A stretch of 64,000 bases of DNA from Streptomyces sp. Je 1-369. Its GTDB lineage: Bacteria > Actinomycetota > Actinomycetes > Streptomycetales > Streptomycetaceae. The notes beneath the pieces were generated by a model that was not told the DNA's origin, did not search any database, and was given only the letters and a program-made list of their open reading frames with translations. Position numbers and translations under genes: made by a program. The DNA lies in assembly GCF_026810505.1 (NCBI RefSeq), contig NZ_CP101750.1, positions 8,420,515 to 8,484,514 on the forward strand. Direction: 5' to 3'. This document shows positions 23,056-45,984 of this stretch, piece by piece; the stretch's first letter is position 1, and every line of letters begins with the position of its first letter.

Positions 23056-23661
23056 GGAACTCCCCTTACTCCGCCCGTGATCGAAACCGCTGACCGGTGA
23101 TGGTGGGGGACGAAACCGGTCCTGGGCGACCTCGGTGATCGCCGTCTGACGGCAGGTCATAAGAGATCTTGGCGCCTTGGAACCCCTGGCACGGTAGAGC
23201 ATGGACAGTCCGTGTGCACCCTGCTCAGCACTCTCATTCGGTCAACCTCGTTCCTCTGGTGACGAGTTCAGGGCGCCCTGCTCGCGCGCGGTCCGTCAAG
23301 AGGCCGGCGGCGGAGTGCTCACCGTCGGATGAATGTCCGCCCGGAATTACTGCCCGTGGGATGAGGAACGGGCAGGTGGGATCGGCCCGGCACGCATTTC
23401 CAATTCGGCCGTTGCGTCGCCCGGTTACTCGTGCGTAAGGTCCGAATCGTTGGCTGAACAAGAAGCAGGGCGGGCCTTTCCGGACGATTGGACGATTGCC
23501 GGTCGGAAGGCACGGCCCGGGGCCTGCTTCGGCTCTCCGGCGCGGATCCCCCTTCGCGCACGTGGTCCCGGCACCCCCCCCGGGCCATGGGAGAGCCCCC
23601 TCCCTCGGACCCTGCGGCGGCCCCCCTGCCGCGGGGTCCGCCCTTTGATCGGAGAGCAGCG
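23056..23661. other. 606-bp divergent regulatory region of the MCE operon
   Basis: It lies between the PucR-type regulator and the first gene of the MCE operon. It contains a candidate promoter with a palindrome-like spacer (23412-23441) and a GGAG ribosome site just before 23662. Open frames on both strands are short shadows without ribosome sites. The untranslated leader would be about 210 nt if the promoter call is right. Confidence 0.55.
23412..23441 (+). promoter_or_regulatory. Candidate MCE-operon promoter with regulon-like element
   Basis: The -35 box TTGCGT (23412-23417), an 18-bp spacer and the -10 box TAAGGT (23436-23441). The spacer holds GCCC and TTACT-CGTG-CGTAA (23425-23438). 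It matches the DUF6801 promoters at 45956 and 42179 in GCCC, TACTCGT and GTA. It is the weakest member of the set. Confidence 0.4.
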
Positions 23662-25149
23662 ATGACTGGTGCCCTGAGCGGCGGGCGCACCGCACGGCTG
23701 GCCGTGGCCGCCGCCGTGGCCTGCGTGGCCGGTCTGCTGCCCGGCTCGGGCTCCGCCGCGCGGGATCAGCGGGAGGCCCGGCTCACGGTCACGTATGACT
23801 GCGGGCTGCCCTCCGGAGACCGGCACGTCGATGTCGCCTTCGACGCCACGTTTCCCGGGCGTGGTGCCGTCGGGAAGCCGATCAGGCCGGTGGGCGTGCG
23901 GGTGCGGGTGAGTCTGTCGCGGACTGTCGTGGCTGAACTGATGCCCGAGGGGACGACGTCGGTCGGGGGAACGGCCGCGGTCGCCACGACCGTCGCGCAG
24001 GGGCGTGAGCGGGCGCGGGCCGAGTGGGCGGAGCTGGCCTCCCCAGAGGTACGGCTGCCCGCGCGCGGTGCCGTCGAGGTCGGCTTCGGCGGCGACGTAC
24101 CGCAGGTGACGGTCGGGGCCGAGGGCGATGTCACGTTCACGGTCGGGCGACTGGACCTCGTGCTCGACCCCGAACTGCGCGATACGGGCGCCCAGCCCGC
24201 CCCGGCCGCCCGCCTGTCCTGCACCCCGGCCCGAGGCGCGGACACCCTGCTCGCCACCGTCCCGGTCGGGGCCGACCCCACCGGGACATCCCCGGCGCCG
24301 GGCACCGGCTCCGCCGATCCGGACGACGGCACCTCCGACGGCACCTCCTCCGACGGAACCCCGAACGACCCCCGAAGCGGCACCCCGAAAGGCATCGACG
24401 CGGGCCCCCAGCCCCGGGCCACCACCGACAAGTGCCCCCTCGACCCGCCCAAGGGCGAGCTCGACCCGAAGCGGCTGCCGTCGCCGCCGCCCGGCGCGGA
24501 GGTCAGCAAGCTGGAGCCGACCTCGATGTGCGCCGTACCGGTGGGCTTCGCCACCCTGCGCAAGCTGAAGAGCTCGGCCATCGTCAACGACCCACGCGGC
24601 AGCGGAAGCGGGGCCCGCGCCGGTCGGCCCGGACTCATGCATCTCGCCATGCGCATGCGCGAGGTCAGGGCTCCCGACTACGTCGAGTACGACCACCTCG
24701 GCCTCATGCAACTCCCGGACGCCGAGGGTACGTTCCTCACCTTCGGGTTCCAGCCGACCACCGCCAAGGTCCGCTTCGAACCCGAGCCCGCGACCATCGT
24801 CAACGTGATCCGGCCGGGCAAGCCTCCCGTGACCAGGGTCGGCTACCGCCAGCATCTGCGCCTGTACGACGTGCGCGTCAACGGGGTGCCCCTCGACGTA
24901 GGGCCCCGCTGCCGCACTTCACGCCCCGTCGACACGGTCCTCACCGGCAACTACCCGGTGAGCGAGGGCGGACTGCTCCAGGGCGAACTCGACATTCCGG
25001 CGCTCGCGGGCTGCGGCGCCCGCGGCGAGGACTTCGACGTGCTGCTCTCCGGCGCGGTCTCCGGACCCGGTAACGCGCTCAGGATCCGCCAAGGGCGCGT
25101 CTGCGGCGCAGGCTCTCCCTGCAACGTCCCGGAGCTGCCCGCCCTTTGA
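23662..25149 (+). CDS. Secreted DUF6801-domain protein, first gene of the MCE operon
   Basis: 495 residues from the ATG at 23662 (GGAG upstream). The signal peptide is ARLAVAAAVACVAGLLPGSGSAA. The DUF6801-like N-terminal domain (~40-190) begins RLTVTYDCGLPSGDRHVDVAF, parallel to KYTCKFPI...EV in the paralogues. A Thr/Asp/Pro/Ser-rich linker (~205-260) follows. The C-terminal domain (~310-490) aligns by eye with those of two other paralogues: FQPTTAKVRFE, VNGVPLDVGPRC, LDIPALAGCG and AVSGPGNALRI. Cysteines near the ends of both domains suggest disulfides. The function is unknown. Leading an MCE operon suggests an extracellular partner for the transporter, perhaps in substrate capture or cell-wall passage. 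Confidence 0.8.
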   Translation: MTGALSGGRTARLAVAAAVACVAGLLPGSGSAARDQREARLTVTYDCGLPSGDRHVDVAFDATFPGRGAVGKPIRPVGVRVRVSLSRTVVAELMPEGTTSVGGTAAVATTVAQGRERARAEWAELASPEVRLPARGAVEVGFGGDVPQVTVGAEGDVTFTVGRLDLVLDPELRDTGAQPAPAARLSCTPARGADTLLATVPVGADPTGTSPAPGTGSADPDDGTSDGTSSDGTPNDPRSGTPKGIDAGPQPRATTDKCPLDPPKGELDPKRLPSPPPGAEVSKLEPTSMCAVPVGFATLRKLKSSAIVNDPRGSGSGARAGRPGLMHLAMRMREVRAPDYVEYDHLGLMQLPDAEGTFLTFGFQPTTAKVRFEPEPATIVNVIRPGKPPVTRVGYRQHLRLYDVRVNGVPLDVGPRCRTSRPVDTVLTGNYPVSEGGLLQGELDIPALAGCGARGEDFDVLLSGAVSGPGNALRIRQGRVCGAGSPCNVPELPAL

Positions 25150-25202
25150 CCGATGGGCCGACCGAACTGTGCGCAACCCCGAAGTACGAGCAAGGAGGTG
25201 CG

Positions 25203-26219
25203 ATGGGAGTCGAAGTGGTCGTCGAAGGGCTGACCAAGTCGTTCGGAAAGCAGAACATCTGGCAGAACGTGACGCTCACCCTGCCGCGCGGCGAGGTCAG
25301 CGTGATGCTCGGCCCGTCCGGTACCGGCAAGACGGTCTTCCTGAAGTCGATCGTCGGCCTGGTCCGCCCCGAACGAGGACACGTCCACATCGACGGTGTG
25401 GACATGGTCAACAGCCGTGAACGGGACGTGTACGAGGCCCGCAAGCTGTTCGGCCTGATGTTCCAGGACGGCGCGCTCTTCGGCTCGCTCAGCCTCTTCG
25501 ACAACGTCGCGTTCCCGCTGCGCGAGCACACCCGCAAGAAGGAGGCGGAGATCCGCCGCATCGTCATGGAGCGGCTCGATCTGGTCGGCCTCGCCGGTGC
25601 CGAGAAGAAGCTGCCCGGCGAGATATCGGGCGGCATGCGCAAACGCGTGGGCCTGGCCAGGGCGCTCGTGCTCGACCCGCAGATCATCCTCTGTGACGAG
25701 CCGGACTCGGGGCTCGACCCGGTGCGCACCTCGTACCTCTCGCAGCTCCTCATCGACATCAACGCGGAGATCGACGCGACGATGCTCATCGTCACCCATA
25801 ACCTCGACATCGCGGCGACCGTCCCGGACAACATGGGGATGCTGTTCCGCCGCAACCTCGTGACGTTCGGGCCCCGCGAAGTGCTCCTCACCAGCGAGGA
25901 ACCGGTGGTCGAGCAGTTCCTCAACGCCCGCCGGGCCGGACCCATCGGCATGTCCGAGGAGAAGGACCAGGCAACCCTGGACCTGGAGGCGGCCCACGGC
26001 ATCGTCGCCGGGCCCCCCACGGAGCGGACCATCGTGCCGCAGCTGGCGCCCACGCCCGGGCTGCCGGAGCGGCGGGCGGTCCGCCGCCGCCAGGAGCGGG
26101 TCAAGGGCATGCTGCACGAGCTGCCGCCCGCGGCCCGCCGCGCCATCGAGGCGAGCCTGCGGGGTGACGACGCGCCCACGCTGGTCGCGCCCCGCGTGAG
26201 CAGAGGAGCGGGCGCATGA
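25203..26219 (+). CDS. MCE-system ABC ATPase (MlaF/Mkl-like)
   Basis: 338 residues. The ATG at 25203 follows an ideal AAGGAGG site; an in-frame upstream start is not needed. Walker A is GPSGTGKT at residues 37-44, the signature ISGGMRKRVGLARAL and Walker B IILCDEPDSGLDP, followed by the H-loop VTHNLD. About 85 residues beyond the ATPase core, rich in Arg and Ala, form the C-terminal extension seen in actinobacterial Mkl proteins. It drives lipid or sterol import by the MCE complex on the inner side of the membrane. Its stop overlaps the first YrbE start (ATGA). Confidence 0.95.
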   Translation: MGVEVVVEGLTKSFGKQNIWQNVTLTLPRGEVSVMLGPSGTGKTVFLKSIVGLVRPERGHVHIDGVDMVNSRERDVYEARKLFGLMFQDGALFGSLSLFDNVAFPLREHTRKKEAEIRRIVMERLDLVGLAGAEKKLPGEISGGMRKRVGLARALVLDPQIILCDEPDSGLDPVRTSYLSQLLIDINAEIDATMLIVTHNLDIAATVPDNMGMLFRRNLVTFGPREVLLTSEEPVVEQFLNARRAGPIGMSEEKDQATLDLEAAHGIVAGPPTERTIVPQLAPTPGLPERRAVRRRQERVKGMLHELPPAARRAIEASLRGDDAPTLVAPRVSRGAGA

Positions 26220-27013
26220 CAGCTCCTCCCGCCGCGCGTCCGCCCCTGCCCGGCCTCGGCGTGCTGCGCGAGATCGGCCACATGTTCGCGCTCGCGGTGA
26301 GCGTGGTCCGCCTGACCTTCAAACGGCCCTTCCAATGGCGGGAGTTCGTCGAGCAGTTCTGGTTCATCGCGAGCGTCACCATCCTGCCCGCCATCCTCGT
26401 GACCATCCCGTTCGGGGCGGTGATCGCCCTCCAAGTCGGCTCACTCATCGAGCAGTTCGGCGCCCAGTCCTTCACCGGCGGCGCCAGCGTCCTCGTCATC
26501 ATCCAGCAGGCGAGCCCGCTGATCGTGTCGCTGCTCATCTCCGGCGTCGCGGGATCCGCGATCTGCGCGGACCTCGCCTCGCGCACCATCCGCGAGGAGC
26601 TCGACGCCATGCGCGTCATGGGCGTCTCGCCCGTCCAGCGCCTCGTCGTCCCCCGGGTGCTCGCCGTTACCCTGGTGGGGCTGCTGCTCAACGGCCTCGT
26701 CTCGGTGGTCGGCACCCTCGGCGGCTATTTCTTCAACGTCATCATGCAGAACGGCACCCCGGGCGCGTACGTCGCGAGCTTCTCCGCGCTCGCCCAACTG
26801 CCCGACCTCTACATCAGCGAGCTGAAAGCGCTGATCTTCGGCTTCATCGCCGGTGTCGTCGCCGCGTACCGCGGACTCCATCCCAAGGGCGGACCGAAGG
26901 GCGTCGGCGACGTGGTGAACCAGTCCGTCGTCTTCACCTTCCTCATCCTCTTCTTCGTCAACACGGTCCTGACGGGCATCTATCTGCAACTCGTCCCCTC
27001 GAAGGGGCTGTGA
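26216..27013 (+). CDS. MlaE/YrbE-family permease A
   Basis: 265 residues with about five or six hydrophobic segments. MlaE family features are QFWFIASVTILPAILVTIPFGAVIALQ and the strongly conserved EELDAMRVMGVSPVQRLVVPRVLAV, which contacts the ATPase. It forms one half of the membrane part of the MCE transporter, with permease B. It is translationally coupled to the ATPase and 3 bp from the next gene. Confidence 0.95.
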   Translation: MTAPPAARPPLPGLGVLREIGHMFALAVSVVRLTFKRPFQWREFVEQFWFIASVTILPAILVTIPFGAVIALQVGSLIEQFGAQSFTGGASVLVIIQQASPLIVSLLISGVAGSAICADLASRTIREELDAMRVMGVSPVQRLVVPRVLAVTLVGLLLNGLVSVVGTLGGYFFNVIMQNGTPGAYVASFSALAQLPDLYISELKALIFGFIAGVVAAYRGLHPKGGPKGVGDVVNQSVVFTFLILFFVNTVLTGIYLQLVPSKGL

Positions 27014-27016
27014 CCC

Positions 27017-27847
27017 ATGGCCCTGACCGAACGCCGCGGCAAGAGCCGCACCTTCGCCTGGCTGGACCGTCCGGGCGACGAACTCCTCTTCTACGTCCGC
27101 GCGTTGGTCTGGATCCCGCGCGCCGTGCGCCGCTACCCCAAGGAGATCCAGCGGCTCCTCGCCGAGGTCGCCTTCGGCAGCGGCGGGCTCGGGGTGATCG
27201 GCGGCACCGTCGGCGTGATGATCGGCATCACCGTCTTCACCGGCACCGTCGTCGGCCTCCAGGGGTACGCGGCCCTCAGCCAGATCGGCACCGACGCGTT
27301 CACCGGATTCGTCTCCGCCTACTTCAACACCCGCGAGATCGGCCCGCTCGTCGCCGCCCTCTCCCTGTCCACCACGGTCGGCGCGGGCTTCACCGCCCAG
27401 CTCGGCGCGATGCGCATCAACGAAGAGGTCGACGCCCTGGAGAGCATGGGGGTCCGCTCCACGCCGTTCCTCGTCAGCACCCGCATTGTGGCCGGTGTGC
27501 TCGCCATCATCCCGCTGTACAGCATCGGACTGGTCGGCTCCTACCTGGCCTCACGGGCGACGACCGTGCTGTTCAACTCCCAGTCCACCGGCACGTACGA
27601 CCACTACTTCCACCTCTTCCTCGTCCCGACGGACGTGCTCCTCTCCTTCCTCAAAGTGATCGTCTTCAGCGTGCTCGTGATCCTCGCGCACTGCTACTAC
27701 GGCTTCCGCGCATCGGGCGGACCCGCCGGAGTCGGGGTGGCCGTCGGCCGCTCGGTGCGGACCGCGATCGTCCTCATCAGCGTCACCGACTTCTTCCTCA
27801 GCCTGGCGCTCTGGGGCGCCACGACCACGGTGAAGGTGGCCGGATGA
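27017..27847 (+). CDS. MlaE/YrbE-family permease B
   Basis: 276 residues, a paralogue of permease A. It has an N-terminal amphipathic part (DELLFYVRALVWIPRAVRRYPKEI) and the MlaE core: GGTVGVMIGITVFTGTVVGLQGY, GFTAQLGAMRINEEVDALESMGV and HCYYGFRASGGPAGVG. The EEVDALESMGV coupling loop matches permease A. The stop overlaps the start of the first MCE protein (ATGA). Together they form the heterodimeric channel typical of actinobacterial mce loci. Confidence 0.95.
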   Translation: MALTERRGKSRTFAWLDRPGDELLFYVRALVWIPRAVRRYPKEIQRLLAEVAFGSGGLGVIGGTVGVMIGITVFTGTVVGLQGYAALSQIGTDAFTGFVSAYFNTREIGPLVAALSLSTTVGAGFTAQLGAMRINEEVDALESMGVRSTPFLVSTRIVAGVLAIIPLYSIGLVGSYLASRATTVLFNSQSTGTYDHYFHLFLVPTDVLLSFLKVIVFSVLVILAHCYYGFRASGGPAGVGVAVGRSVRTAIVLISVTDFFLSLALWGATTTVKVAG

Positions 27848-29175
27848 GCGCCCCGCCGGACACGCGAAAGCCCCCGCCCCGCCCGTCGCCCGGGCCGGCG
27901 CCGCGCACACGCCCCACGGAGGGCGCCGTCGCCCGCCGCAGACGTCTCGCCGGAGTGGTGTACCTCGTCGTGCCCGCCCTGCTGGTCTGGCTGTCGATCG
28001 CCGTGTACGAGAAGAAGTTCGTGGACTCCGCGTCCGTCGTCGTCGAGACGGGGCGGGCCGGCAGCGAGATGCGCCCGAGCGCCGAGGTCAAACTGCGGGG
28101 CGTCGTCGTCGGCGAGGTCGAGCGGATCGACACCGACGGCCGCACCGCACGCCTCACCCTCGCCCTGCAACCGGACAAGATCGGCCGGGTCCCGTCCGAC
28201 GTCCGCGCCCAGCTGCTGCCGACCACCCTCTTCGGACAGCGGTACGTCGCCCTCGTACCCCCCGAACGTCCCTCCGCGCACCCGCTGACCGCGGGCAGCG
28301 TCATCCCGCAGGACCGCAGCCGCAGCGCCGTCGAGCTGGACCAGGTGCTCGACAACCTGCTGCCGCTGCTCACCGCCGTACAACCGCAGAAGCTGTCGGC
28401 CACGCTGTCGGCGCTGGCCCAGGCCCTCGAAGGGCGGGGCGAGAAGCTCGGCACGTCGATGGTGGCCCTGGACGGCTACCTGAAGGACTTCAATCCCCAC
28501 CTGCCGTCCCTCAACCAGGACATCAAAGAGCTCGTCGAGCTCAGCGACACCTACGCCGACGCGGCCCCCGACCTCGTCGACGCGCTGCACGACGCCACCA
28601 CCACGAGCGCCACCATCGCCGAGCGGCGCGCCGGACTGTCCTCGCTGTACGCCTCCGTCACCAGCAGCTCACAGGAGCTCGGCAGCTGGCTGCGGAGCAA
28701 CCGGGCCAACCTCATCCGGCTGACCGCGACTGCCCGCCCGACGCTGCGGATCCTCGCGGAGTACGCGCCCGCCTTCCCCTGCACCCTGAGCACGGTCGCC
28801 GACTTCGTGCCGGTGATGGACGCGGCCCTCGGCAAGGGCACGGACCGGCCGGGACTGAGCGTCGACGTGCACGTCGTTCCCTCGCGCGGCGCGTACGTGC
28901 CGGGCCGGGACACGCCCCGCTACACCGCGGGCGGCGGGCCGCGCTGCTACCCCGTCCCCTACACCGGCGGCTCGTACACGGCGCGGAAGGCGAGCACGGC
29001 CACCGCGTTGAGCGGGGTGTCCGGCGGTCTCGGCGTGGCCAACTCGCCGCAGGAGAACAGCCTTGTCACCGAACTCCTCGCCGCACAGGACCGGTCGCGG
29101 CGCGGCCCGCTGCCCGACTGGTCGAGCGTGCTCGCAGGACCGGCCTTCCGCGGGGCGGAGGTGAAGCTGAAGTGA
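27844..29175 (+). CDS. MCE-family protein, position A
   Basis: 443 residues. A Pro/Arg-rich cytoplasmic start (~40 residues) is followed by a membrane helix (LAGVVYLVVPALLVWLSIAVY). The MCE domain (~65-145) has MRPSAEVKLRGVVVGEVERI and TTLFGQRYVALVPP. A long helical region (~165-330) and a C-terminal tail with FPCTLS and GPRCYPVP follow. MCE subunits assemble into a hexameric tube that guides lipids across the envelope. I used the ATG at 27844 that overlaps permease B. Confidence 0.93.
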   Translation: MSAPPDTRKPPPRPSPGPAPRTRPTEGAVARRRRLAGVVYLVVPALLVWLSIAVYEKKFVDSASVVVETGRAGSEMRPSAEVKLRGVVVGEVERIDTDGRTARLTLALQPDKIGRVPSDVRAQLLPTTLFGQRYVALVPPERPSAHPLTAGSVIPQDRSRSAVELDQVLDNLLPLLTAVQPQKLSATLSALAQALEGRGEKLGTSMVALDGYLKDFNPHLPSLNQDIKELVELSDTYADAAPDLVDALHDATTTSATIAERRAGLSSLYASVTSSSQELGSWLRSNRANLIRLTATARPTLRILAEYAPAFPCTLSTVADFVPVMDAALGKGTDRPGLSVDVHVVPSRGAYVPGRDTPRYTAGGGPRCYPVPYTGGSYTARKASTATALSGVSGGLGVANSPQENSLVTELLAAQDRSRRGPLPDWSSVLAGPAFRGAEVKLK

Positions 29176-30206
29176 GCGGACAGCGCAGCCTGACCGGGCC
29201 CGCCGTCAAGTCCCTGATCTTCATCGTGGTGACCGCCCTGGCCACCACCGTGCTCGCCGTGAGCGTCGCGGGCACCGATGTCGGCCGTACCCGTACCTAC
29301 AAGGCCTGGTTCACCGACGCCACCGGCCTGAACGAGGGCGACTCGGTGCGCGTCGCCGGGGTGGAGGTGGGCCAGGTGTCGTCCATCGAGATCGTCCAAC
29401 GGCGGTACGCGGAGGTCGAGTTCGCGCTCGACGAGGACCGTCGGATGCCTGCCTCCGCGACGGCCTCCATCAAGTACCTCAACATGATCGGGCAGCGCTT
29501 CGTCGATGTGCGGCGGGGCGCGGGTCCGGTCGGCCGCGCCCTGGAACCCGGGCAGACCATCCCGCTGAGCCGCACCTCCCCGGCGCTCGACCTGACCCAG
29601 CTCTTCAACGGATTCCAGCCGCTGATGCAGGGACTCTCCCCGCGGGACACCAATGAGCTCGCCGCGTCCATCGTGCAGGTGCTCCAGGGCGAGGGCGGCA
29701 CGGTCGAGAGTCTCCTGCGGACCATCGGGTCGCTGACCACGACGGTCGCCGCCAAAGACCGGGTGATCGGGGAGGTCATCACGAACCTCAACCGGGTCCT
29801 CAAGGCCGTCAACACCCGGCAGAAGGGCTTCACCGAACTCATCGGCACGGTGGAGGAACTGGTCTCCGGGTTCGCGGACGACCGCAAGACCGTCGGCCGG
29901 TCCGTCGACTCGCTCGCCAAGCTCAGCGTCAGCACGGCGGACCTGTTCGGGCAGAGCCGGGCACCCCTGAAGGACGGCATACGCGACCTCGGGCGGCTGT
30001 CGAAGACCCTCGACGACCACGCGCCGCTGGTCGAGAACTTCCTGGAGAAGACGCCGCGGAAGATGGCGGCCGTCTCCCGCGTCGCGTCGTACGGCTCCTG
30101 GCTGAACCTGTATCTCTGCGAGGCGAAACTCAGCGGGGTCTCCACCTACGACGGCAGTCCGCCGCCGACCGGACTCGCCATCAAGGCTGCGAGGTGCCGG
30201 GCATGA
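29172..30206 (+). CDS. MCE-family protein, position B
   Basis: 344 residues, GTG start overlapping the previous stop. An N-terminal membrane helix (KSLIFIVVTALATTVLAVSVA) precedes the MCE domain (~40-125): ATGLNEGDSVRVAGVEVGQVSSIEI and TASIKYLNMIGQRFVDVRRG. A coiled-coil-like helical region (~135-310) follows. It has the short C-terminus usual for MceB. The stop overlaps the ATG of the next MCE gene. Confidence 0.93.
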   Translation: MSGQRSLTGPAVKSLIFIVVTALATTVLAVSVAGTDVGRTRTYKAWFTDATGLNEGDSVRVAGVEVGQVSSIEIVQRRYAEVEFALDEDRRMPASATASIKYLNMIGQRFVDVRRGAGPVGRALEPGQTIPLSRTSPALDLTQLFNGFQPLMQGLSPRDTNELAASIVQVLQGEGGTVESLLRTIGSLTTTVAAKDRVIGEVITNLNRVLKAVNTRQKGFTELIGTVEELVSGFADDRKTVGRSVDSLAKLSVSTADLFGQSRAPLKDGIRDLGRLSKTLDDHAPLVENFLEKTPRKMAAVSRVASYGSWLNLYLCEAKLSGVSTYDGSPPPTGLAIKAARCRA

Positions 30207-35322: not shown

Positions 35323-35332
35323 GGGGGCGCAG

Positions 35333-36010: not shown

Positions 36011-36021
36011 AGGAGGGGAAC

Positions 36022-36573: not shown

Positions 36574-36584
36574 GGGGCTGCTCC

Positions 36585-37247
36585 ATGCCGACGACACGCC
36601 ATATGGTCAACCGGCAAAGGCGGTTGACCGCCTACGAGGGCCGAAGAACCGCCACACCCCCTCCCGCGCCGCCGCGCGTCCCGCGCCCTACGGCCCGGAA
36701 ACGTACGACCCGGGCGGCCGCCCGCAGGAGCATTCCGCGGCCGGTGCTGCTCGCCGTACTCACTCTCTTCGCCGTACTGGCCGGATGCTTCGCTGCCTAC
36801 GCGCACACGCGGGCCGGAGACCTGCGTGACGTACCCGCCGCGCGCAACGCGGCGCTCACCGACACGGCCCGCACCGGCGAGGTGAAGGGCACGGTCGGCC
36901 AGGCCGTCGACGCGGTCTTCTCCTACGACCACACGGACCCGGGCCGGACCGAGAAGGCCGCGGCCAAGTACCTGACCGGCAGAGCCGTCGGCCAGCACCG
37001 GGAGATGCTCGCTCAGGTCCGCGCCCAGGGCGAACGTCAGAAGCTCGTCCTGACCACCACCGTCACCCACAGCGGAGTCGAGGTCGTCGACGGCGACCGG
37101 GCCCGTGTCCTGGTCTTCGCCGACCAGAGCAACACCAGTACGGCCAAGGGAGGTTCGGCCACGCAGGCGGCAGCGATGTTCGCCGTGGACGTGGTCCAGC
37201 GGGGCGGGAGCTGGCGGATCGCGAACATCGACACCTTCAACAGATGA
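36585..37247 (+). CDS. Mce-associated membrane protein, type 2 copy 2
   Basis: 220 residues. A basic, proline-rich cytoplasmic start (~55 residues) is followed by the membrane helix RPVLLAVLTLFAVLAGCFAAYA. The outer Mas domain has NAALTDTARTGEVKGTVGQAVDAVFSYDHTD and GGSWRIANIDTFNR. It pairs in sequence with the protein at 35333. The gene is 11 bp after the type 1 copy 2 gene and 7 bp before the lipoprotein. Confidence 0.8.
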   Translation: MPTTRHMVNRQRRLTAYEGRRTATPPPAPPRVPRPTARKRTTRAAARRSIPRPVLLAVLTLFAVLAGCFAAYAHTRAGDLRDVPAARNAALTDTARTGEVKGTVGQAVDAVFSYDHTDPGRTEKAAAKYLTGRAVGQHREMLAQVRAQGERQKLVLTTTVTHSGVEVVDGDRARVLVFADQSNTSTAKGGSATQAAAMFAVDVVQRGGSWRIANIDTFNR

Positions 37248-39502: not shown

Positions 39503-40625
39503 AAGCGCTGATCATGTCGTTGAGGGCGCCGCAGTCCTTGAGGCCGGGCAGGGTGTACGTGCCCTTGAGCCTGCCGCCCTTGTAGGGCTCGAAGCGGCCC
39601 TCGCCGACCAGGTCCATCTTCGCGGGTCCGACGGTTCCGCAGTCCGGCCCGCCGCCGATGGGCAGGCCGAACGTGCTCACGCCAGTGAGTTTCACGTACA
39701 TCTCGGCGTGCGCCTTGAGGCTGCCCGCCGTGTCGAGGGTCCCCGTCGTCCTTGCGGTCTGCTCGAAGGCGATGTCCGCGGTCGCGGGCAGGAGGCCGAG
39801 GAGGGTGAAGCGGCCGGTGGTCGGGTCGAGTTCCAGGTCGGCGTCGAAGGTTCCCTTGTCCAGGTCGTAGCGCGTGTCGATGCCGCCGAGCAGCGGCGCG
39901 CTGCCGTTGGCCGCCTTGATGAAGGAGCTGCCCTTGATGCCGAAGCTCAGCGGCACCGGCTCACCGCCCGGGTCCGTCGGGTCCGGCGGGTCCGGCGGGT
40001 CCGTCGGATCCGTCGCACCCGGCTCCACCTGGATGGTGTGGAGCGTCCTGTTCTGGTCCGCGGGATCGAGCGTGCACTCGGTCTCGAACGTGTCGAGGCC
40101 CGTCTTGGCACCGGCCGCGTCCCGCGGGGTTATCGTCAGGAGCAGGCTGTTGACGTCGATCTTCACGCTGCCGGGCTGCCGGAACGTCAGCGGCGGCGCC
40201 TGTCCGGTCGCCGTCACCTCGAAGTCGGCGGGCGGGTCCGGCAGAGGTGTCCTGGGGATGGTGTTGTCGAGCCCGATGTCCAGTGGGCCCTCCGGCGTAC
40301 GGACGGTGATGTCCGCCGTGGCGACCCCTTCGAGGGTAGTACCGCCGACCGTCCGCAGCGCGGTGGCGGCCGCCTTGCCGACCTTGGACACCGAGACGAC
40401 CCGGAACGCCGGTATCCGCTCGCCGACCTTCACCTTGGCCGGCAGGTCCGCCGTGATGTCGACCGTGAGCGGGTCCTCCTCCATGAGCGGGAACACACAC
40501 GTATACCTCTGCTTCAGCGTTACCGGGGCCGCGGTGGCCGGCGGCCCGGAGGTGAAGCCGGTCAGCACGGCGAGCAGAGCCCCGGCAGGGGCGATCCGCC
40601 GCGATAGGGCGCGCGATCTCAACAC
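39447..40625 (-). CDS. Secreted DUF6801-domain protein (paralogue 2)
   Basis: 392 residues from a GTG at 40625, chosen because GGAGAGG precedes it and it leads straight into the signal peptide. An ATG at 40697 would place a hairpin inside the gene. The DUF6801 domain starts LKQRYTCVFPLMEEDPLTVDI. The linker is Asp/Pro/Thr (DPTDPPDPPDPTDPGGE). The C-terminal domain (~230-392) is VPLSFGIKGSSFIKAANGS, GLPIGGGPDCG, TLPGLKDCGALND and TTGPGNTIDMDLTY. It is close to the protein at 40730. There is no anchor motif, so it is probably secreted. The gene ends inside the convergent HTTM gene. Confidence 0.82.
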   Translation of the reverse strand: MLRSRALSRRIAPAGALLAVLTGFTSGPPATAAPVTLKQRYTCVFPLMEEDPLTVDITADLPAKVKVGERIPAFRVVSVSKVGKAAATALRTVGGTTLEGVATADITVRTPEGPLDIGLDNTIPRTPLPDPPADFEVTATGQAPPLTFRQPGSVKIDVNSLLLTITPRDAAGAKTGLDTFETECTLDPADQNRTLHTIQVEPGATDPTDPPDPPDPTDPGGEPVPLSFGIKGSSFIKAANGSAPLLGGIDTRYDLDKGTFDADLELDPTTGRFTLLGLLPATADIAFEQTARTTGTLDTAGSLKAHAEMYVKLTGVSTFGLPIGGGPDCGTVGPAKMDLVGEGRFEPYKGGRLKGTYTLPGLKDCGALNDMISAFTTGPGNTIDMDLTYEKQ

Positions 40626-40653
40626 TGCCTCTCCAAGTCTTGAGGGGAACAGT

Positions 40654-40685
40654 CCGGCCCCCCGCCGGTAGGGGCGAGGGGCCGG
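40654..40685. terminator. Hairpin between two DUF6801 genes
   Basis: CCGGCCCC (40654-40661) and GGGGCCGG (40678-40685) form a perfect 8-bp stem. It lies between the stop of the gene at 40730 and the start at 40625 on the minus strand, so it may end or attenuate that transcript. Confidence 0.55.
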
Positions 40686-40729
40686 GTCGGTCGTCATGCG
40701 GTCTCACCGCTGGGGAGTCGCCGACGGTG

Positions 40730-42001
40730 CTACTGCTTGTAGGTGAGGTCCATGTCGATGGTGTTGCCGGGACCCGCGGTGAACGCGCTGATGATGTCGT
40801 TGAGGCCGCCGCAGCCCTTGAGCGCGGGCAGGGTGTACGTGCCCTTGAGCTTGCCGCCCTTGTAGGGCTGGAAGCGGCCCTCGCTGGCCAGGTCGACCTT
40901 GGCGGGCGTGCCGCTCTTGCAGTCGGGGCCGCCGCCGATCGGGATGCCGAAGACGTTGACGCTACCGAGCTTGACGAACATCTCGGACTGCGACTTCAGG
41001 GCTCCCGCCGTGTCCAGCGTTCCGGTGGTCTTGCCGGTCTGCTCGAAGGCGATGTCCGCGGTCGTGGGCAGGAAGCCCATGATGGTGAACTGGCCCTTGG
41101 TCGGGTTGAGCTTCAGGTCGGCGTCGAACGTGCCCTTGCTCAGGTCGTAGCGGGTGTCGATGCCGCCGGTGAGCGGGGTGCTGCCGTTGGCGGCCTTGAT
41201 GACCGACGTGCCCTTGATGTCGAAGTTGAGCTTCACTGGGTCATTGCCCGGCGGGTCGGTGGGAGGGTCGGTGGGCGGGTCCGTCGGAGGGTCCGTGGGC
41301 GGGTCGGTCGGGGGATCGGTGGGCGGATCGGTCGGCGGGTCCGTGGGATCGGTGCTGCCGCCGCCGATGGTCATCGTGTGGAGCGTGGTGGGCTGCCCCG
41401 CGTCCATGGTGCATTCGGCGGTGAATTCGTCGCCGTTCGGGGGGAGTTGGACGGGCTTGCCGTCCGCGTCCCGGGCGATCATGTTGTGCAGCTTCAGGCC
41501 CTTCACGTCGAACTTGGCGGTGCCCTCCTTCTCCCACGTCAGCAGGCCGCCGGGCGACTTGCCGCTGGCGATGACGTTGAACGCCGCCGCCGGGTTGGGG
41601 ATGTTCGCCTTGGCGACCGTGTTGACGACCTTGATGGGCAGGTTGCCGGTGCCGCCCGGCAGGGTCACGTTCACATCGGCGGTGGCCTTGCCCTCCAGCG
41701 TGACCGCCCCGAGCACGCCGAGACCTTGGGCCGCGCGCTGACTCACCTTGGTGACGGCCTTGATGTCGTACTCGGGGACCGTCTCTCCCACCTTCATGGT
41801 GGCGGGCATGTCGGCGCTGATCTCGACTTCGATCGGATCGTTGTTGATGATCGGGAACTTGCAGGTGTACTTCTGCGTGAGCTTCACCGGGTCGGCGGCG
41901 GCGGTGCCGCCGCCCAGACTGACCAGACCGGTGACGAGGCCGGCGGCCGCCACGGCGCTCAGGGCGGTGCGTGCCCTGACTTGTCTCTTGTGCGCTCCCA
42001 T
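40730..42001 (-). CDS. Secreted DUF6801-domain protein (paralogue 3)
   Basis: 423 residues from the ATG at 42001 (GAGAGGTAG upstream). The signal peptide ends GGTAAADP. The DUF6801 domain (~36-200) begins KLTQKYTCKFPIINNDPIEVEI and contains NIPNPAAAFNV and GLKLHNMIARDADG. The linker is eight or so DPPT repeats (~222-255). The C-terminal domain (~257-423) has FDIKGTSVIKAANGSTPL, FGIPIGGGPDCK, TLPALKGCGGLND and TAGPGNTIDMDL. The rigid DPPT linker suggests a stalk through the cell wall. It is expressed from a promoter with the shared palindrome (42179-42207). Confidence 0.85.
   Translation of the reverse strand: MGAHKRQVRARTALSAVAAAGLVTGLVSLGGGTAAADPVKLTQKYTCKFPIINNDPIEVEISADMPATMKVGETVPEYDIKAVTKVSQRAAQGLGVLGAVTLEGKATADVNVTLPGGTGNLPIKVVNTVAKANIPNPAAAFNVIASGKSPGGLLTWEKEGTAKFDVKGLKLHNMIARDADGKPVQLPPNGDEFTAECTMDAGQPTTLHTMTIGGGSTDPTDPPTDPPTDPPTDPPTDPPTDPPTDPPTDPPGNDPVKLNFDIKGTSVIKAANGSTPLTGGIDTRYDLSKGTFDADLKLNPTKGQFTIMGFLPTTADIAFEQTGKTTGTLDTAGALKSQSEMFVKLGSVNVFGIPIGGGPDCKSGTPAKVDLASEGRFQPYKGGKLKGTYTLPALKGCGGLNDIISAFTAGPGNTIDMDLTYKQ
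41240..41346 (-). repeat. Coding tandem repeat, DPPT linker
   Basis: Repeated 12-bp units encode D-P-P-T in the DUF6801 protein at 40730. A similar tract occurs in the sortase-anchored paralogue near 43102-43200. Copy number differs between the two genes. Confidence 0.85.
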
Positions 42002-42178: not shown

Positions 42179-42207
42179 AAACTACTGGCGGGTAGTTGGG
42201 CGGTCAA
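42179..42207 (-). promoter_or_regulatory. DUF6801 promoter with spacer palindrome (site 1)
   Basis: Read on the minus strand: -35 TTGACC (42202-42207), 17-bp spacer, -10 TAGTTT (42179-42184). AACTACT-GGCG-GGTAGTT (42180-42197) is a near-perfect palindrome that overlaps the -10 box. It drives the gene ending at 42001. Confidence 0.7.
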
Positions 42208-42351: not shown

Positions 42352-42380
42352 TTGACGGTCCCCCTACCTGTCAGTAGTCA
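42352..42380 (+). promoter_or_regulatory. DUF6801 promoter with spacer palindrome (site 2)
   Basis: -35 TTGACG (42352-42357), 17-bp spacer, -10-like TAGTCA (42375-42380). The spacer/-10 contains CTACC-TGTC-AGTAG (42364-42377). It is 40 bp upstream of the first ATG of the sortase-anchored DUF6801 gene. Confidence 0.6.
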
Positions 42381-42419: not shown

Positions 42420-43448
42420 ATGGGAGATCGCATGGGAGACCGCATGGGAGAGCAGCCGGGAAAAGCGACGGTGCGACTGGCGCGGGGGTCCGCCCTGGCA
42501 GGGGTCTCCGCCGTACTGCTCGCGCTGACCGCCGGCGGTGGCAGCGCGTCGGCGGAGCCCGTGTCGCTCACGCAGAAGTACACCTGCAAGTTCCCGATCA
42601 TCAGCAATGACGCCATCGAAGCCGCGATCACCACGGACATGCCCGCCACCATGAAGGTCGGCGAGACGGTGCCCGAGTACGACATCAAGGCGGTCACCAA
42701 GGTCAGCGCGCGGGCCGCGCAGGGCCTAGGGGTGCTCGGGGCGGTCACGCTGGAGGGCAAGGCGACGGCCGACGTCGTGGTCACCCAGCCCGGCGGCGAC
42801 GGCACCCTGCCCATCAAGGTGGTCAACACGGTCGCCAAGGCGAACATCCCCAATCCGGCCGCGCCGTTCGAGGTGACGGCGACGGGCAAGTCGCCCGGCG
42901 GGCTGCTGACCTGGGGCAAGGCGGGTGAGGCGGCCTTCGACGTGAAGGGCCTGAAGCTGCACAACATGATCGCCCGGGACGCGGAGGGCAAGCCCGTACC
43001 GCTTCCGCCGAACGGCGACGAGTTCACCGCGGACTGCACCCTCGACGCTGGGCAGAAGACGCTCCTGCACAAGATGACGATCACGGGCGGCGGCGGTGGG
43101 GACCCGACGGACCCGCCCACGGATCCCCCGACCGACCCGCCCACGGACCCGCCCACCGACCCGCCGACCGATCCGCCCGCGGACCCGCCCGCGGACCCCG
43201 CCGACCCGACCGACCCGAGCGGCTCCGGCGGTCTCCCCGCGAGCGACGGCGGGACGACGACCGGCGGCTCCGGTTCCTCAGGCACCGACCTGAACACCGA
43301 GGTGACCGGCGGTTCGGGCGGTCTCGCGGCCACCGGCACGTCCGGCGTCGGCCTGATGCTGGCGGCGGCGGGCGGACTCGGCGCCGCGGGCATAGCGGCC
43401 TTCCACTACCTGCCGCAGCGCATCAGGAGGGGCGGGCAGGCGGTCTGA
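42420..43448 (+). CDS. DUF6801-domain surface protein with LAATG sortase anchor (paralogue 4)
   Basis: 342 residues if the first ATG (42420) is used. ATGs at 42432 and 42444 are equally supported because a 12-bp repeat places GGGAG before each. A signal peptide (ALAGVSAVLLALTAGGGSASA) and the DUF6801 domain (QKYTCKFPIISNDAIEAAI through LHKMTITGG) follow. A DPPT/DPPA stalk (~230-265) and a Gly/Ser-rich stretch come next. The C-terminal sorting signal is LAATG, a hydrophobic helix (VGLMLAAAGGLGAAGIAAFHYL) and the basic tail PQRIRRGG. LAxTG is the class E sortase motif of Streptomyces (as in long chaplins), so it should be covalently fixed to peptidoglycan. It lacks the C-terminal domain of the secreted paralogues. 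Confidence 0.88.
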   Translation: MGDRMGDRMGEQPGKATVRLARGSALAGVSAVLLALTAGGGSASAEPVSLTQKYTCKFPIISNDAIEAAITTDMPATMKVGETVPEYDIKAVTKVSARAAQGLGVLGAVTLEGKATADVVVTQPGGDGTLPIKVVNTVAKANIPNPAAPFEVTATGKSPGGLLTWGKAGEAAFDVKGLKLHNMIARDAEGKPVPLPPNGDEFTADCTLDAGQKTLLHKMTITGGGGGDPTDPPTDPPTDPPTDPPTDPPTDPPADPPADPADPTDPSGSGGLPASDGGTTTGGSGSSGTDLNTEVTGGSGGLAATGTSGVGLMLAAAGGLGAAGIAAFHYLPQRIRRGGQAV

Positions 43449-43533: not shown

Positions 43534-44529
43534 TCAACCTCGCGCGGTGGTGCGGGCCCTGCGACGCCGCACCACCACGCCGACGACCAGGAAGACCACC
43601 ACCAGGACGAGCGCCACGAGCACGCTCCAGTTCACCGTGCGATACCCCGTGCTTCCGCTCGCCACCAGCTCACCGGCCTTGTCGCTCGCGGTCAGCTCGA
43701 CGCTGCCCCAGTCCAGTGGAGGGGGTCCGGCCCACTTCTGGGTGATCCGCACGCGCTGGCCGGGCATCAGCTCGGCCGGCAGCTTGTTGCCCGCGCTGTC
43801 GAAGGACGTCCGGCCGAAAAGCCCCTTGGCCTTGAGGTCGACCCTCGGTTCGAGCATCACGTTCCCGCTGTTCACGAGGGTGTACGTGACGGTGGCGTCC
43901 TTGCCGAGGCCGGGCAGCGGCGGCACCTTGTAGTCGAAGCGCACGTCCCGCACACTCAGCCCCGGCGCCCGTTCGCCCTTCACCTGGAGGTAGACCCGCG
44001 CGCCGACCGCCTGCCGGACGCCGACGCCGGTGCCCTTGGCGCGGGCGACGCGTTTGTCCAGGGCGATGATGGCTCCGGGATGGTCGCCCGGCGGCGCGGT
44101 GCGCGGCAGGGCGAGGGTGAAGGGCACGGTCGCTCTGCCGCCCGCGGGAACGGTGACCTCCGACCGTGCGAGCCGCGCCCAGGCCCCGACGGACCGCTGC
44201 TTCTCGCTCCGCTCGCGTACCGCGAAGCCGCCGTCGCGCGGGGTGTTGTAGGCGTCGGCCGCGTAGAGCAGGAACGTCACCGGCTCCTTGGCGAGATTGG
44301 AGACGGTGACCTTGTCGCGCAGGGTGCGCCCGGGATCGGCCTGCATCCGGAAGTACGCCCGATGGTCGGCGCCTTTGCGGGCGGTGGGGAAGACGGACCA
44401 ACGGCCGTTGTCCGCAGCGTACGCGTCCGACGGCGGGCTCGCGGTGAGCAGACCGAGCGCCATGGCGAGCGCGGTGAGGAGCACGGCGGCGCGTCTGCGG
44501 TGCGTGGACTGCGTACGGACGACATTCAT
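43534..44529 (-). CDS. DUF916/WxL-interacting-type membrane protein
   Basis: 331 residues from the ATG at 44529. The signal peptide (VLLTALAMALGLLTASPPSDAYA) precedes an Ig-like outer domain. Its landmarks are GRWSVFPTARKGADHRAYFRMQADPGRTLRDKVTVSNLAKEPVTFLLYAADAY and VTVPAGGRATVPFTLALP, typical of DUF916. A second beta domain (DUF3324-like) has VTYTLVNSGNVMLEPRVDLK. A C-terminal membrane helix (VLVALVLVVVFLVVGVVV) and a basic tail end it. In Firmicutes such proteins bind WxL-domain surface proteins and peptidoglycan. The WxL-like DUF6801 protein just upstream (44711) fits that partnership. Confidence 0.82.
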   Translation of the reverse strand: MNVVRTQSTHRRRAAVLLTALAMALGLLTASPPSDAYAADNGRWSVFPTARKGADHRAYFRMQADPGRTLRDKVTVSNLAKEPVTFLLYAADAYNTPRDGGFAVRERSEKQRSVGAWARLARSEVTVPAGGRATVPFTLALPRTAPPGDHPGAIIALDKRVARAKGTGVGVRQAVGARVYLQVKGERAPGLSVRDVRFDYKVPPLPGLGKDATVTYTLVNSGNVMLEPRVDLKAKGLFGRTSFDSAGNKLPAELMPGQRVRITQKWAGPPPLDWGSVELTASDKAGELVASGSTGYRTVNWSVLVALVLVVVFLVVGVVVRRRRARTTARG

Positions 44530-44552
44530 GCGGCCCCCAGGGAGAGAAGAGA

Positions 44553-44586
44553 GGTGGACCGGCCGTCGCACAACGGCCGGTCCACC
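44553..44586. terminator. 14-bp perfect hairpin upstream of the DUF916 gene
   Basis: GGTGGACCGGCCGT (44553-44566) and its complement (44573-44586) flank a 6-nt loop. On the minus strand it sits 23 bp before the DUF916 ATG and after the WxL-like gene. It may terminate or attenuate between them, or be a leader hairpin. Confidence 0.65.
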
Positions 44587-44598
44587 GGGCACAGCGCT

Positions 44599-44703: not shown

Positions 44704-44710
44704 GGTCAGG

Positions 44711-45856
44711 TCAGGTCAGCGTCAGCGTGAGCACGGACGCGTACTCACCCGCCGCCGCGGTCGCCGGTACGTCGAGCGCGAGGCCCGCGCCGACCGTGAA
44801 CTCGCCGCCGGTCTGCGCCGCGTCGGGCGCGCTCGCCAGCGTGGCGCCCGCCGTGCCGACCGGCCCCTGCGAGCCGGGCACACATGTGCTGGCCGAGCCG
44901 GCCGCCGTCGCGCAGGACGGCGTCCAGCCGAGCTTGTCCGCGCCGATGGCGCCGGCGCTGCCCGTGAAGTCGGTGACCTTCCCGGTGAGCGACCAGCCGG
45001 TGGCGCCGTTACGGGCGTCCTTGACGGTCACCTTCTGCAGGTCGCCGGTCGATTTACCGCCCGCGCCCTCCTCGACCGGTGACAGCGCGACGGTGTCGCC
45101 CGCCTGGGCCATGGTGAGCTGACCGCCGCCCTGCTCCGGCGTGACCTTGGTGTTCACGTTCTGCTTGCCGGTCGTGGGGTCGGGGCCGGGGTCCGGATCG
45201 GGGTCGGTGCCGCCGCCCTTGATCTCCATGGTGTGCAGGAGCGTCTTCTGGCCCGCGTCGAGCGTGCAGGCTGCGTCGAACTCGTCGCCGAACGGCGGGA
45301 GCTGGACCGGGGCGCCGGACGCGTCCCGGGCGATCATGTTGTGCAGCTTGAGGCCCGTGACGTCGAACTTGGCGGTGCCGGGCTTGGCCCAGGTCAGCAA
45401 GGAGCCGGGTGACTTGCCGGTCGCGTTGACCTCGAACGCGGCGGCGGGGTTGGGGATGTTCGCCTTGGCGACGTTGTTGACCACCTTGATCGGCAGGGTG
45501 CCCTCGCCGCCGGGCAGCGCGACGACCACGTCCGCCGTGGCCTTGCCCTCCAGGGTCACCGCGCCCATGACGCCGAGCCCTTGGGCGGCCCGCGCGCTGA
45601 CCTTGGTGAGGGCCTTGATGTCGTACTCGGGGACCGTCTCGCCGACGTTCATGGTGGCGGGCATGTCCGAGGAGATCTGGATCTCGATCGGGTCGTTGCT
45701 GATGATCGGGAACTTGCACGTGTACTTCTGGGCCAGCTGCACAGGGGCGGCAGTGGCGACGCCGGGTGTGAGCGTGACCAGACCGGCGACGAGTCCCGCG
45801 GTCGCGACGGTACACAGGATGCCGCGGACCCCGGTTCTTTTTCGATGAGCTCTCAT
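44711..45856 (-). CDS. DUF6801 protein with C-terminal WxL-like domain (paralogue 5)
   Basis: 381 residues from the ATG at 45856. The signal peptide ends GVATAAP. The DUF6801 domain (~38-215) begins QLAQKYTCKFPIISNDPIEIQI, with NIPNPAAAFEV and GLKLHNMIARDASG. A short DPDPDPGPDP linker follows. The C-terminal ~150 residues differ from those of the other paralogues and look like a WxL surface domain: VNTKVTPEQGGGQLTMA, TVKDARNGATGWSLTGKVTDFTG (the W-S-L motif) and LGWTPSCAT, ending ...GEYASVLTLTLT. WxL domains attach non-covalently to peptidoglycan. The next gene encodes a DUF916-type partner. The promoter carries the shared palindrome. Confidence 0.85.
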   Translation of the reverse strand: MRAHRKRTGVRGILCTVATAGLVAGLVTLTPGVATAAPVQLAQKYTCKFPIISNDPIEIQISSDMPATMNVGETVPEYDIKALTKVSARAAQGLGVMGAVTLEGKATADVVVALPGGEGTLPIKVVNNVAKANIPNPAAAFEVNATGKSPGSLLTWAKPGTAKFDVTGLKLHNMIARDASGAPVQLPPFGDEFDAACTLDAGQKTLLHTMEIKGGGTDPDPDPGPDPTTGKQNVNTKVTPEQGGGQLTMAQAGDTVALSPVEEGAGGKSTGDLQKVTVKDARNGATGWSLTGKVTDFTGSAGAIGADKLGWTPSCATAAGSASTCVPGSQGPVGTAGATLASAPDAAQTGGEFTVGAGLALDVPATAAAGEYASVLTLTLT

Positions 45857-45955
45857 GAGCTGCCTCTCGTACTGCGTGAAGGAGCAGAACGGGTGAAGGA
45901 AGAATGGCCGTACATGTCGTTATCTTCGCCAGATACGACTCTGTTTCGAATCGGT

Positions 45956-45984
45956 AAACTACTGACGAGTAGTTGGGCGGTCAA
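45956..45984 (-). promoter_or_regulatory. DUF6801 promoter with perfect palindrome (site 3)
   Basis: On the minus strand: -35 TTGACC (45979-45984), 17-bp spacer, -10 TAGTTT (45956-45961). AACTACT-GACG-AGTAGTT (45957-45974) has perfect 7-bp arms and overlaps the -10. It matches the site at 42179 in box sequences, spacing and most spacer bases. The leader is about 93 nt. Confidence 0.75.

What the first reader, a model, noticed from the sequence alone, without database searches (positions are those of the whole stretch)
23412..45984. Shared palindrome-in-spacer promoter links the DUF6801 genes and possibly the MCE operon
Three DUF6801 promoters have the form TTGAC(C/G), 17-bp spacer, TAGT(T/C)(T/A), with a palindrome between and over the boxes: AACTACT-GACG-AGTAGTT (45957), AACTACT-GGCG-GGTAGTT (42180) and CTACC-TGTC-AGTAG (42364). 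The MCE promoter at 23412 shows a weaker match (GCCC, TACTCGT, GTA in register). A repressor or spacer-binding activator could bind one face and control all of them. This suggests one regulon for a surface lipid system. The regulator may be the PucR-type protein at 21814 or a distant TetR.
Basis: partly seen in the sequence, partly recalled or inferred. Interest (0 to 1): 0.8.

Follow-up and report, generated by a model that had tools for sequence, protein, structure and literature searches.

The report
Shared operator in Streptomyces lipid-locus promoters
Several Streptomyces promoters that drive a lipid transporter and a family of secreted proteins of unknown function carry the same mirror-image DNA switch, conserved across many species, so these genes are probably controlled together by one regulator that still has to be proved.

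Summary
The three DUF6801 promoters (TTGAC-N17-TAGTYW, with a TAC-N6-GTA palindrome running into the -10 box) hold the only exact copies of the core in the 8.8-Mb genome. A matrix from this species and S. boncukensis finds the element at 10 of 12 orthologous promoters in four other Streptomyces species, while flanks are about 30% identical. In 392 Streptomyces genomes 11 of 15 hits are at DUF6801 genes, reversed control 0.

The MCE match is also real: the same palindrome, in the same register to the -10 box, is conserved in five species, in 31 of 35 MCE promoters of the PucR-associated type, and in 0 of 19 of a second type. Six other genomes carry the MCE form at both MCE and DUF6801 operons, though 21 of 29 DUF6801-side regions lack the full element.

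Best reading: an operator of a dimeric repressor co-controlling both gene sets. The regulator is open: the linked PucR, or a FasR/FadR-like TetR with a near-identical presumed operator at fatty-acid genes. Binding and expression are untested.

The parts
45956..45984 (-). promoter-operator element of DUF6801 gene C: -35 TTGACC (45979-45984), 17-bp spacer, -10 TAGTTT (45956-45961); palindrome 45957-45974
   Evidence: strong at the orthologous gene in 6 of 6 species
42179..42207 (-). promoter-operator element of DUF6801 operon A: -35 TTGACC, 17-bp spacer, -10 TAGTTT; palindrome 42180-42197
   Evidence: strong in 6 of 6 species
42352..42380 (+). promoter-operator element of DUF6801 gene B: -35 TTGACG, 17-bp spacer, -10 TAGTCA; palindrome 42364-42377
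   Evidence: strong in 4 of 6 species, palindrome degenerate in S. melanogenes and S. sp. CBMA152
23412..23441 (+). MCE-form element: -35 TTGCGT, 18-bp spacer, -10 TAAGGT; palindrome TTAC-N6-GTAA 23425-23438
45943..45949 (-). TCGAAAC box just downstream of the C -10 box (CCGAAAC at the A promoter, 42166-42172 minus)
   Evidence: conserved in most, not all, A and C promoters of the six species; role unknown
44711..45856 (-). DUF6801 gene C
   Evidence: Pfam PF20611, 2.9e-20
43534..44592 (-). WxLIP-like gene, probably second gene of the C operon (118-bp gap)
   Evidence: Pfam PF06030, 2.9e-8; conserved next to C in relatives
42420..43448 (+). DUF6801 gene B
   Evidence: Pfam PF20611, 2.1e-20
40730..42001 (-). 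DUF6801 gene A2, first gene behind the A element
   Evidence: Pfam PF20611, 5.9e-22
39447..40697 (-). DUF6801 gene A1, 32 bp behind A2, probably same operon
   Evidence: Pfam PF20611, 3.2e-29; no element of its own
23662..25149 (+). DUF6801 gene heading the MCE operon
   Evidence: Pfam PF20611 on the ORF 23488-25149, 2.7e-23; start at 23662 by inspection
25146..37247 (+). MCE operon: ABC ATPase, two MlaE permeases, Mce proteins, accessory proteins
   Evidence: Pfam; counterparts in five relatives
21814..23055 (-). PucR-type regulator, divergent from the MCE operon; candidate regulator
   Evidence: Pfam HTH_30, 5.6e-17 (on 21814-23202); counterparts at the locus in four relatives; co-occurs with this MCE type; start at 23055 by inspection

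Best explanation
The four promoters carry variants of one operator, a TAC-N6-GTA palindrome (DUF6801 form YTACYNNNMAGTANTTT, MCE form GTTACYNNNNCGTARSGT), whose right arm overlaps the first two bases of the -10 box of a sigma-70-type promoter (HrdB-like; the sigma factor is recalled, not tested). A dimeric regulator bound there would most likely repress by blocking RNA polymerase, and would release DUF6801 operons and the MCE transporter together in response to a lipid-type signal. Shown: sequence, register, conservation, near-confinement, and sharing of the element by MCE and DUF6801 operons in other species. Inferred: binding, repression, ligand. Leading but unproved regulator: the divergent PucR-type protein 21814-23055, about 0.4.
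For: A matrix from two species recovers 10 of 12 orthologous DUF6801 promoters in four others. Mean pairwise identity of C promoters is 1.0 in the -35 box, 0.80 in the 11 palindrome-side spacer bases, 0.90 in the -10 box, against 0.32 upstream and 0.34 further downstream. In 392 genomes 11 of 15 hits are at DUF6801 genes, reversed control 0. MCE form: 43 hits in 36 of 121 genomes, reversed control 1; 35 of 43 lie at the PucR/DUF6801/MCE locus (positions held; loci). In 700 bp upstream of first-type MCE operons 31 of 35, shuffles 0; second type 0 of 19. Six genomes (G023, G059, G075, G103, G105, G116) carry the element at both the MCE and the DUF6801 operon. PucR at 47% identity or more in 33 of the 34 genomes with this MCE type and in none of the other 87 at E 1e-60.
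Against: No binding, start-site or expression data. DUF6801 and MCE forms differ (17 against 18-bp spacer; A against C at the first base of the right arm), so one regulator for both is inferred. The cluster promoters and the MCE lead gene may share ancestry through gene duplication. The palindrome is lost at gene B in two species. On the DUF6801 side of other species only 8 of 29 loci have the full element. Off-locus matches lie at acyl-CoA genes, two of them in genomes without the linked PucR. Two Actinomadura loci with PucR near DUF6801 lack the palindrome.
Confidence: 0.6

Rival explanations
1. The palindrome is an operator of a fatty-acid regulator of the TetR family (a relative of mycobacterial FasR and of FadR) encoded elsewhere in the genome, which also covers acyl-CoA genes; MCE and DUF6801 genes are members of that regulon.
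For: TTACYN4RGTAA has 6 sites in this genome and 9, 13 and 13 in three others, against 1 or 2 for the reversed control. In this genome and S. longisporoflavus two adjacent copies lie between a TetR gene and an SCP2 gene, the latter followed by an acyl-CoA dehydrogenase in S. longisporoflavus; single or partly doubled copies precede an acyl-CoA dehydrogenase and a short-chain reductase. That TetR scores best against the NCBIfam FasR and FadR models, below their cut-offs, and its best named relatives in the PDB are TetR regulators. Off-locus matches to the promoter elements lie at a lipase, a thiolase, an enoyl-CoA hydratase and an acyl-CoA dehydrogenase.
Against: Second-type MCE promoters of the same genus have no such palindrome (0 of 19). 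MCE sites have C, not A or G, at the first base of the right arm; DUF6801 outer bases are often C and G, not T and A. Of the 8 further sites looked at, several lie at genes with no evident lipid role, dnaK among them. The TetR was not surveyed across the genus, and no TetR stands at this locus with conservation.
Confidence: 0.3
2. PucR does control the locus, but as an activator from another site, and the spacer palindrome belongs to a different, unidentified repressor.
For: PucR regulators named in PMC7652997 are activators except one dual one, and GabR binds between -87 and -23; FasR of S. coelicolor and MabR bind at about -67, -87 and -147 (PMC5541348). PucR is conserved at the locus.
Against: Apart from the promoter copies I saw no other clearly conserved block in the five-species alignment of the pucR-mce region, but that region aligns poorly and no formal search was made.
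Confidence: 0.18
3. The conserved sequence is only a core promoter: the spacer is kept for RNA polymerase or a particular sigma factor, without an operator.
For: Both boxes are conserved along with the spacer, and the palindrome overlaps the -10 box.
Against: The element is symmetric; in two species gene B keeps the -35 box and a -10-like box but not the palindrome; second-type MCE promoters do without it; both 17- and 18-bp spacers occur.
Confidence: 0.1
4. The similarity reflects promoter duplication along with DUF6801 gene duplication, with no common regulator today.
For: All these promoters in the window drive DUF6801 genes, including the MCE lead gene.
Against: Flanks have diverged to about 30% identity while the element is kept; in most other species the MCE element lies directly ahead of the ATPase gene, with the DUF6801 gene elsewhere at the locus.
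Confidence: 0.08

Closest known systems
PucR-class lipid regulators MabR (Rv2242) of Mycobacterium tuberculosis and FasR (SCO2386) of Streptomyces coelicolor
   Same: PucR-type C-terminal helix-turn-helix (MabR), regulation of lipid genes, inverted-repeat sites (PMC5541348, PMC11617747, passages). The window PucR matches the solved MabR C-terminal part 9f80 at 3.8e-6.
   Different: Their reported sites lie well upstream of the promoter and they activate; here the palindrome is inside the promoter. The match to MabR covers residues 252-375 only.
TetR-type regulators of lipid uptake and breakdown (KstR, Mce3R, FasR Rv3208, FadR)
   Same: TetR proteins with palindromic operators are known at such genes (KstR, KstR2 and Mce3R at carbon-use genes, PMC4482099 passages; the rest recalled); a FasR/FadR-like TetR with a near-identical presumed operator is present in this genome.
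   Different: No such gene stands at this locus with conservation; the outer bases of the DUF6801 palindrome and the right arm of the MCE one differ from TTACYN4RGTAA.
Streptomyces mce6-type operon
   Same: ATPase gene upstream of the yrbE genes (PMC1810536, passages).
   Different: The word 'promoter' does not occur in that paper's text and the passages seen describe no Streptomyces mce regulator; here there are two MCE types among Streptomyces and only one carries the element.

Membership tests
One regulon with a shared operator | Same palindrome at several transcription units, in one register to the promoter | tested here: met
   Three DUF6801 promoters and the MCE promoter; TA of GTA is the start of the -10 box in all
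One regulon with a shared operator | Conserved at orthologous genes while flanks diverge | tested here: met
   16 of 18 DUF6801 promoters of six species
One regulon with a shared operator | Sites confined to functionally related genes | tested here: met
   DUF6801 form: 11 of 15 hits at DUF6801 genes in 392 genomes. MCE form: 35 of 43 hits at the locus in 121 genomes. Of the 12 others, 7 precede acyl-CoA dehydrogenase or enoyl-CoA hydratase genes (Pfam for 4 of the 7; the rest by eye), 1 lies by a lipoyl synthase gene, 4 have no clear target or were not looked at
One regulon with a shared operator | One protein binds all sites | not testable with these tools
   needs binding assays
PucR regulon | PucR-type gene at the target locus | tested here: met
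   in G017 and G073 on another contig than MCE, so linkage not seen there
PucR regulon | Site upstream of the -35 box, activation | tested here: not met
   palindrome lies between -35 and -10; activation itself not testable
PucR regulon | Element absent where this PucR is absent | tested here: inconclusive
   0 of 19 second-type MCE promoters, but a like element at acyl-CoA dehydrogenase genes in G089 and G120, which lack PucR at 47% identity
FasR/FadR-like TetR regulon | Operator TTACYN4RGTAA | tested here: inconclusive
   one S. boncukensis site (TTACTCGTAAGTAA) fits fully; the window's sites differ at an outer base or at the right arm
FasR/FadR-like TetR regulon | Regulator gene present in genomes with the element | tested here: inconclusive
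   found in this genome and S. longisporoflavus; not surveyed further

The most novel reading that the evidence does not exclude
In the Streptomyces species that have this MCE type, one lipid-sensing regulator, a PucR protein working as a repressor from inside the core promoter, couples an MCE lipid transporter to a family of secreted surface proteins of unknown function (DUF6801), and in some species to a neighbouring polyunsaturated-fatty-acid-synthase-like polyketide synthase, forming one envelope-lipid system.
Probability: 0.3. Interest if true: 0.68.

Novelty: new member of a known kind. Interest (0 to 1): 0.52.

Why it matters
DUF6801 is a family of unknown function by its Pfam name, and a search of the held library for that name found 0 papers. 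A conserved shared operator ties the family to MCE lipid transport in many Streptomyces species, gives a short list of two candidate regulators, and makes the question testable with a few gel shifts and two deletion strains. It also separates two kinds of Streptomyces MCE operon by their promoters.

Tried and rejected
Chance match: rejected. A motif search by EM on stretches upstream of DUF6801 genes picked up coding repeats of the upstream gene, not a promoter motif; I then scanned the loci for the palindrome. A first idea that the MCE likeness was a coincidence of a GTGCGTA box was dropped after the five-species comparison. The palindrome TACCSGYCGGTA, or a close form of it, upstream of DUF6801 genes in seven loci has the core but no -35 box in register; I do not count it as the full element. 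TetR 18416: no counterpart in the relatives' loci. The SCO3201 operator differs (passages of PMC7324645). The polyketide synthase promoters in four species show no second palindrome. No element at a matrix score of 14 or more in the Actinosynnema, two Actinomadura, Patulibacter and Alcanivorax loci; a looser look at Actinomadura and Actinosynnema gave one palindrome, in Actinosynnema, without boxes in register. The count of promoter-like sites is biased, because the DNA came from these loci, and is not used as a test.

Limits of the counts. (six genomes, up to 2 mismatches): 26 matches, 16 at DUF6801 promoters, 3 at a lipase, 4 at a thiolase gene, 3 not looked at (G121 C8 and C45, G124 C33); reversed control 2, both in G124; hits G032 and G048 not looked at; G065 (second) and G084 looked at without a clear target. 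One search scored at most 15 candidates in a genome. One search left out the window/S. longisporoflavus pair but kept the other close pair, S. melanogenes/CBMA152. One search used 35 first-type loci: 31 of the 34 genomes (without G050, G073, G102) plus four named relatives; six loci whose operon starts with DUF6801 were measured upstream of that gene; its shuffle keeps dinucleotides only approximately. It used 19 of the 20 second-type loci (G099 not fetched); no PucR was found in the roughly 3 kb upstream read there, but one of those genomes, G006, has PucR at its first-type locus; the genes at most sites of G029 and all of G125 were not looked at.

Papers: only passages found by term were seen for PMC11617747, PMC1810536, PMC5539140, PMC7324645, PMC5541348, PMC7652997, PMC3511530 and PMC4482099; all others only in search listings. 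The listings showed no report of this element; that is not proof of absence. Recalled, from no call: HrdB as the sigma factor, MerR long-spacer activation, KstR and Mce3R operator details.
Full report
What was claimed and what is there. Three DUF6801 promoters were said to share a palindrome inside a TTGAC-N17-TAGT promoter, with a weaker copy at the MCE operon. The letters and positions are right. The window lies at 8420515-8484514 of an 8.82-Mb chromosome. Its genus is Streptomyces: genome G073, listed as same genus, has a 30,174-base contig with the DUF6801 cluster that is S. boncukensis in the named collection.

Uniqueness in the genome. The 15-base core has three exact matches in the chromosome, all here; the fuller pattern likewise. 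The genome has five DUF6801 genes, all in the window. Three head transcription units with this element; 39447-40697 lies directly behind 40730-42001; the fifth heads the MCE operon.

Conservation of the DUF6801 form. S. boncukensis carries the element at three DUF6801 promoters. A matrix from these six sites was run on ten named loci found by protein, one of them S. boncukensis itself. In S. longisporoflavus, S. melanogenes, S. sp. CBMA152 and S. gossypii, which did not train it, 10 of 12 orthologous promoters score 33.8 or more. The two exceptions are gene B in S. melanogenes (18.6) and CBMA152 (20.6), where the -35 box is kept and the palindrome is damaged. The five loci from Actinosynnema, Actinomadura (two), Patulibacter and Alcanivorax have nothing at 14 or more. 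Over all six species, mean pairwise identity of C promoters is 1.0 for the -35 box, 0.36 for the first six spacer bases, 0.80 for the 11 palindrome-side bases, 0.90 for the -10 box, 0.68 for the next 16 bases, and 0.32 and 0.34 for the outer flanks; A promoters behave alike (1.0, 0.54, 0.69, 0.94, 0.50; flanks 0.32 and 0.30), B promoters less strongly (0.90, 0.38, 0.58, 0.62, 0.28; flanks 0.28 and 0.30).

Confinement. In 392 Streptomyces genomes the pattern TTGACN7YTACYN3MAGTANTTT with one mismatch allowed has 15 hits in 10 genomes; the reversed control has none. Eleven are at DUF6801 genes: all nine exact ones (two by identity of contig coordinates with S. longisporoflavus) plus G236 and G126. 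Three precede an enoyl-CoA hydratase gene (Pfam on one) and one lies beyond the 3' end of a lipoyl synthase gene. Gene B of the window has two mismatches to this pattern and is not among the hits.

The MCE form. PucR, the MCE operon and the DUF6801 cluster stand together in S. longisporoflavus, S. melanogenes, CBMA152 and S. gossypii; in S. boncukensis they are on separate contigs. PucR is the only transcription factor recognised among the conserved genes. The pucR-mce regions of five species share TTGCG-N7-GTTAC-N6-GTAASGT: -35 TTGCG, 18-bp spacer, -10 TAASGT, with the TA of GTA again the start of the -10 box. S. boncukensis has a like site about 500 bp upstream of its pucR. In 121 genomes the pattern TTGCN8GTTACN5CGTARSGT with one mismatch allowed has 43 hits in 36 genomes against 1 for the reversed control. 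Held against the positions of DUF6801, PucR and MlaE genes, 35 of 43 lie at that locus; four precede an acyl-CoA dehydrogenase gene (G073, G088, G089, G120; Pfam on three); four are elsewhere.

Two kinds of MCE operon. A permease of the operon is found in 53 of 121 genomes: 34 have a match at 79% identity or more, 20 one at 65-68%, one genome having both. PucR at 47% or more occurs in 33 of the 34 (G088 by a partial match) and, at E 1e-60, in none of the other 87; the 34th, G050, is a fragmentary assembly with a partial PucR at a contig end. Within 700 bp upstream, 31 of 35 first-type promoters carry the full element (none in 200 shuffles) and 0 of 19 second-type promoters do. In the four misses the DUF6801 gene stands ahead of mce; G006 and G088 carry the element further upstream, ahead of that gene, and G056 and G005 have only a palindrome TACCGGTCGGTA there.

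MCE and DUF6801 operons share the element elsewhere too. In G023, G059, G075, G103, G105 and G116 one copy lies upstream of the MCE ATPase gene and another upstream of the DUF6801 operon, both in the MCE form with a 17- or 18-bp spacer. On the DUF6801 side 8 of 29 loci have the full element within 2 kb and 21 do not. The six genomes are the best evidence that the two units are controlled together.

Mechanism. If the start lies 7 bp after the -10 box (assumed), the palindrome spans -22 to -11. Such a place favours a repressor that blocks RNA polymerase. MerR-like distortion of long spacers (recalled) does not fit 17-18 bp. Near-consensus boxes at the DUF6801 promoters fit a need for repression. 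None of this is shown by experiment.

Which regulator. For PucR: presence at the locus and co-occurrence, an invariant stretch in the helix-turn-helix part among 14 homologues, and relatedness of its C-terminal part to the lipid regulator MabR. Against: known PucR proteins mostly activate, and lipid-regulating ones bind upstream of the promoter (passages); like elements stand before acyl-CoA dehydrogenase genes in two genomes without this PucR; in two Actinomadura loci PucR stands near DUF6801 without the palindrome. For a TetR: the near-identical palindrome TTACYN4RGTAA is enriched over its reversed control, lies in two adjacent copies between an SCP2 gene and a FasR/FadR-like TetR gene in this genome and S. 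longisporoflavus, and acyl-CoA and lipase genes recur among off-locus matches. Against: second-type MCE promoters lack it, and the sites differ in detail. I put PucR at about 0.4 and this TetR at about 0.3.

Verdict. It is a new regulon of a familiar kind.

Noticed in passing
46211-58246 +: Large polyketide/polyunsaturated-fatty-acid-synthase-like genes (best NCBIfam model for the first is PfaA, below its cut-off) stand beside the DUF6801 cluster; counterparts in three relatives, none in the stretches read in S. longisporoflavus and S. gossypii.
   Followed up: partly
L227 2227-2256; L232 2282-2311; L071 11462-11491: Two adjacent TTACYN4RGTAA palindromes ahead of SCP2 genes (followed by an acyl-CoA dehydrogenase in L232 and L071), with a divergent FasR/FadR-like TetR gene in L227 and L232: probably the operator of a fatty-acid regulon.
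   Followed up: partly
window 45943-45949 and 42166-42172, minus: CGAAAC box just downstream of the -10 box in most A and C promoters of the six species; might be a second protein site or an early-transcript signal.
   Followed up: no
L240-L258: Second-type MCE promoters share their own strongly conserved block (CGACGGA ... CGTAGAGCAG) upstream of the ATPase gene, with no TAC-N6-GTA palindrome.
   Followed up: no
L170 (S. sp. CBMA152) and L168 (S. melanogenes), pucR-mce intergenic: A second, degenerate copy of the MCE-form promoter lies some hundred bases upstream of the first.
   Followed up: no
L071 10990, L072 815, L084 9967, L088 127: Palindrome TTACC-N4-RGTAAGTTGA close to the 3' end of pucR, ahead of a small gene of about 88 residues where that was translated.
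   Followed up: no
L115 10001-10552: A DUF6801-like protein is encoded in Alcanivorax hongdengensis, outside the Actinobacteria (32% identity).
   Followed up: no
L184, L185, L186, L187: Acyl-CoA dehydrogenase promoters carry an MCE-form element in four genomes, two of which (G089, G120) lack this PucR and this MCE type.
   Followed up: partly
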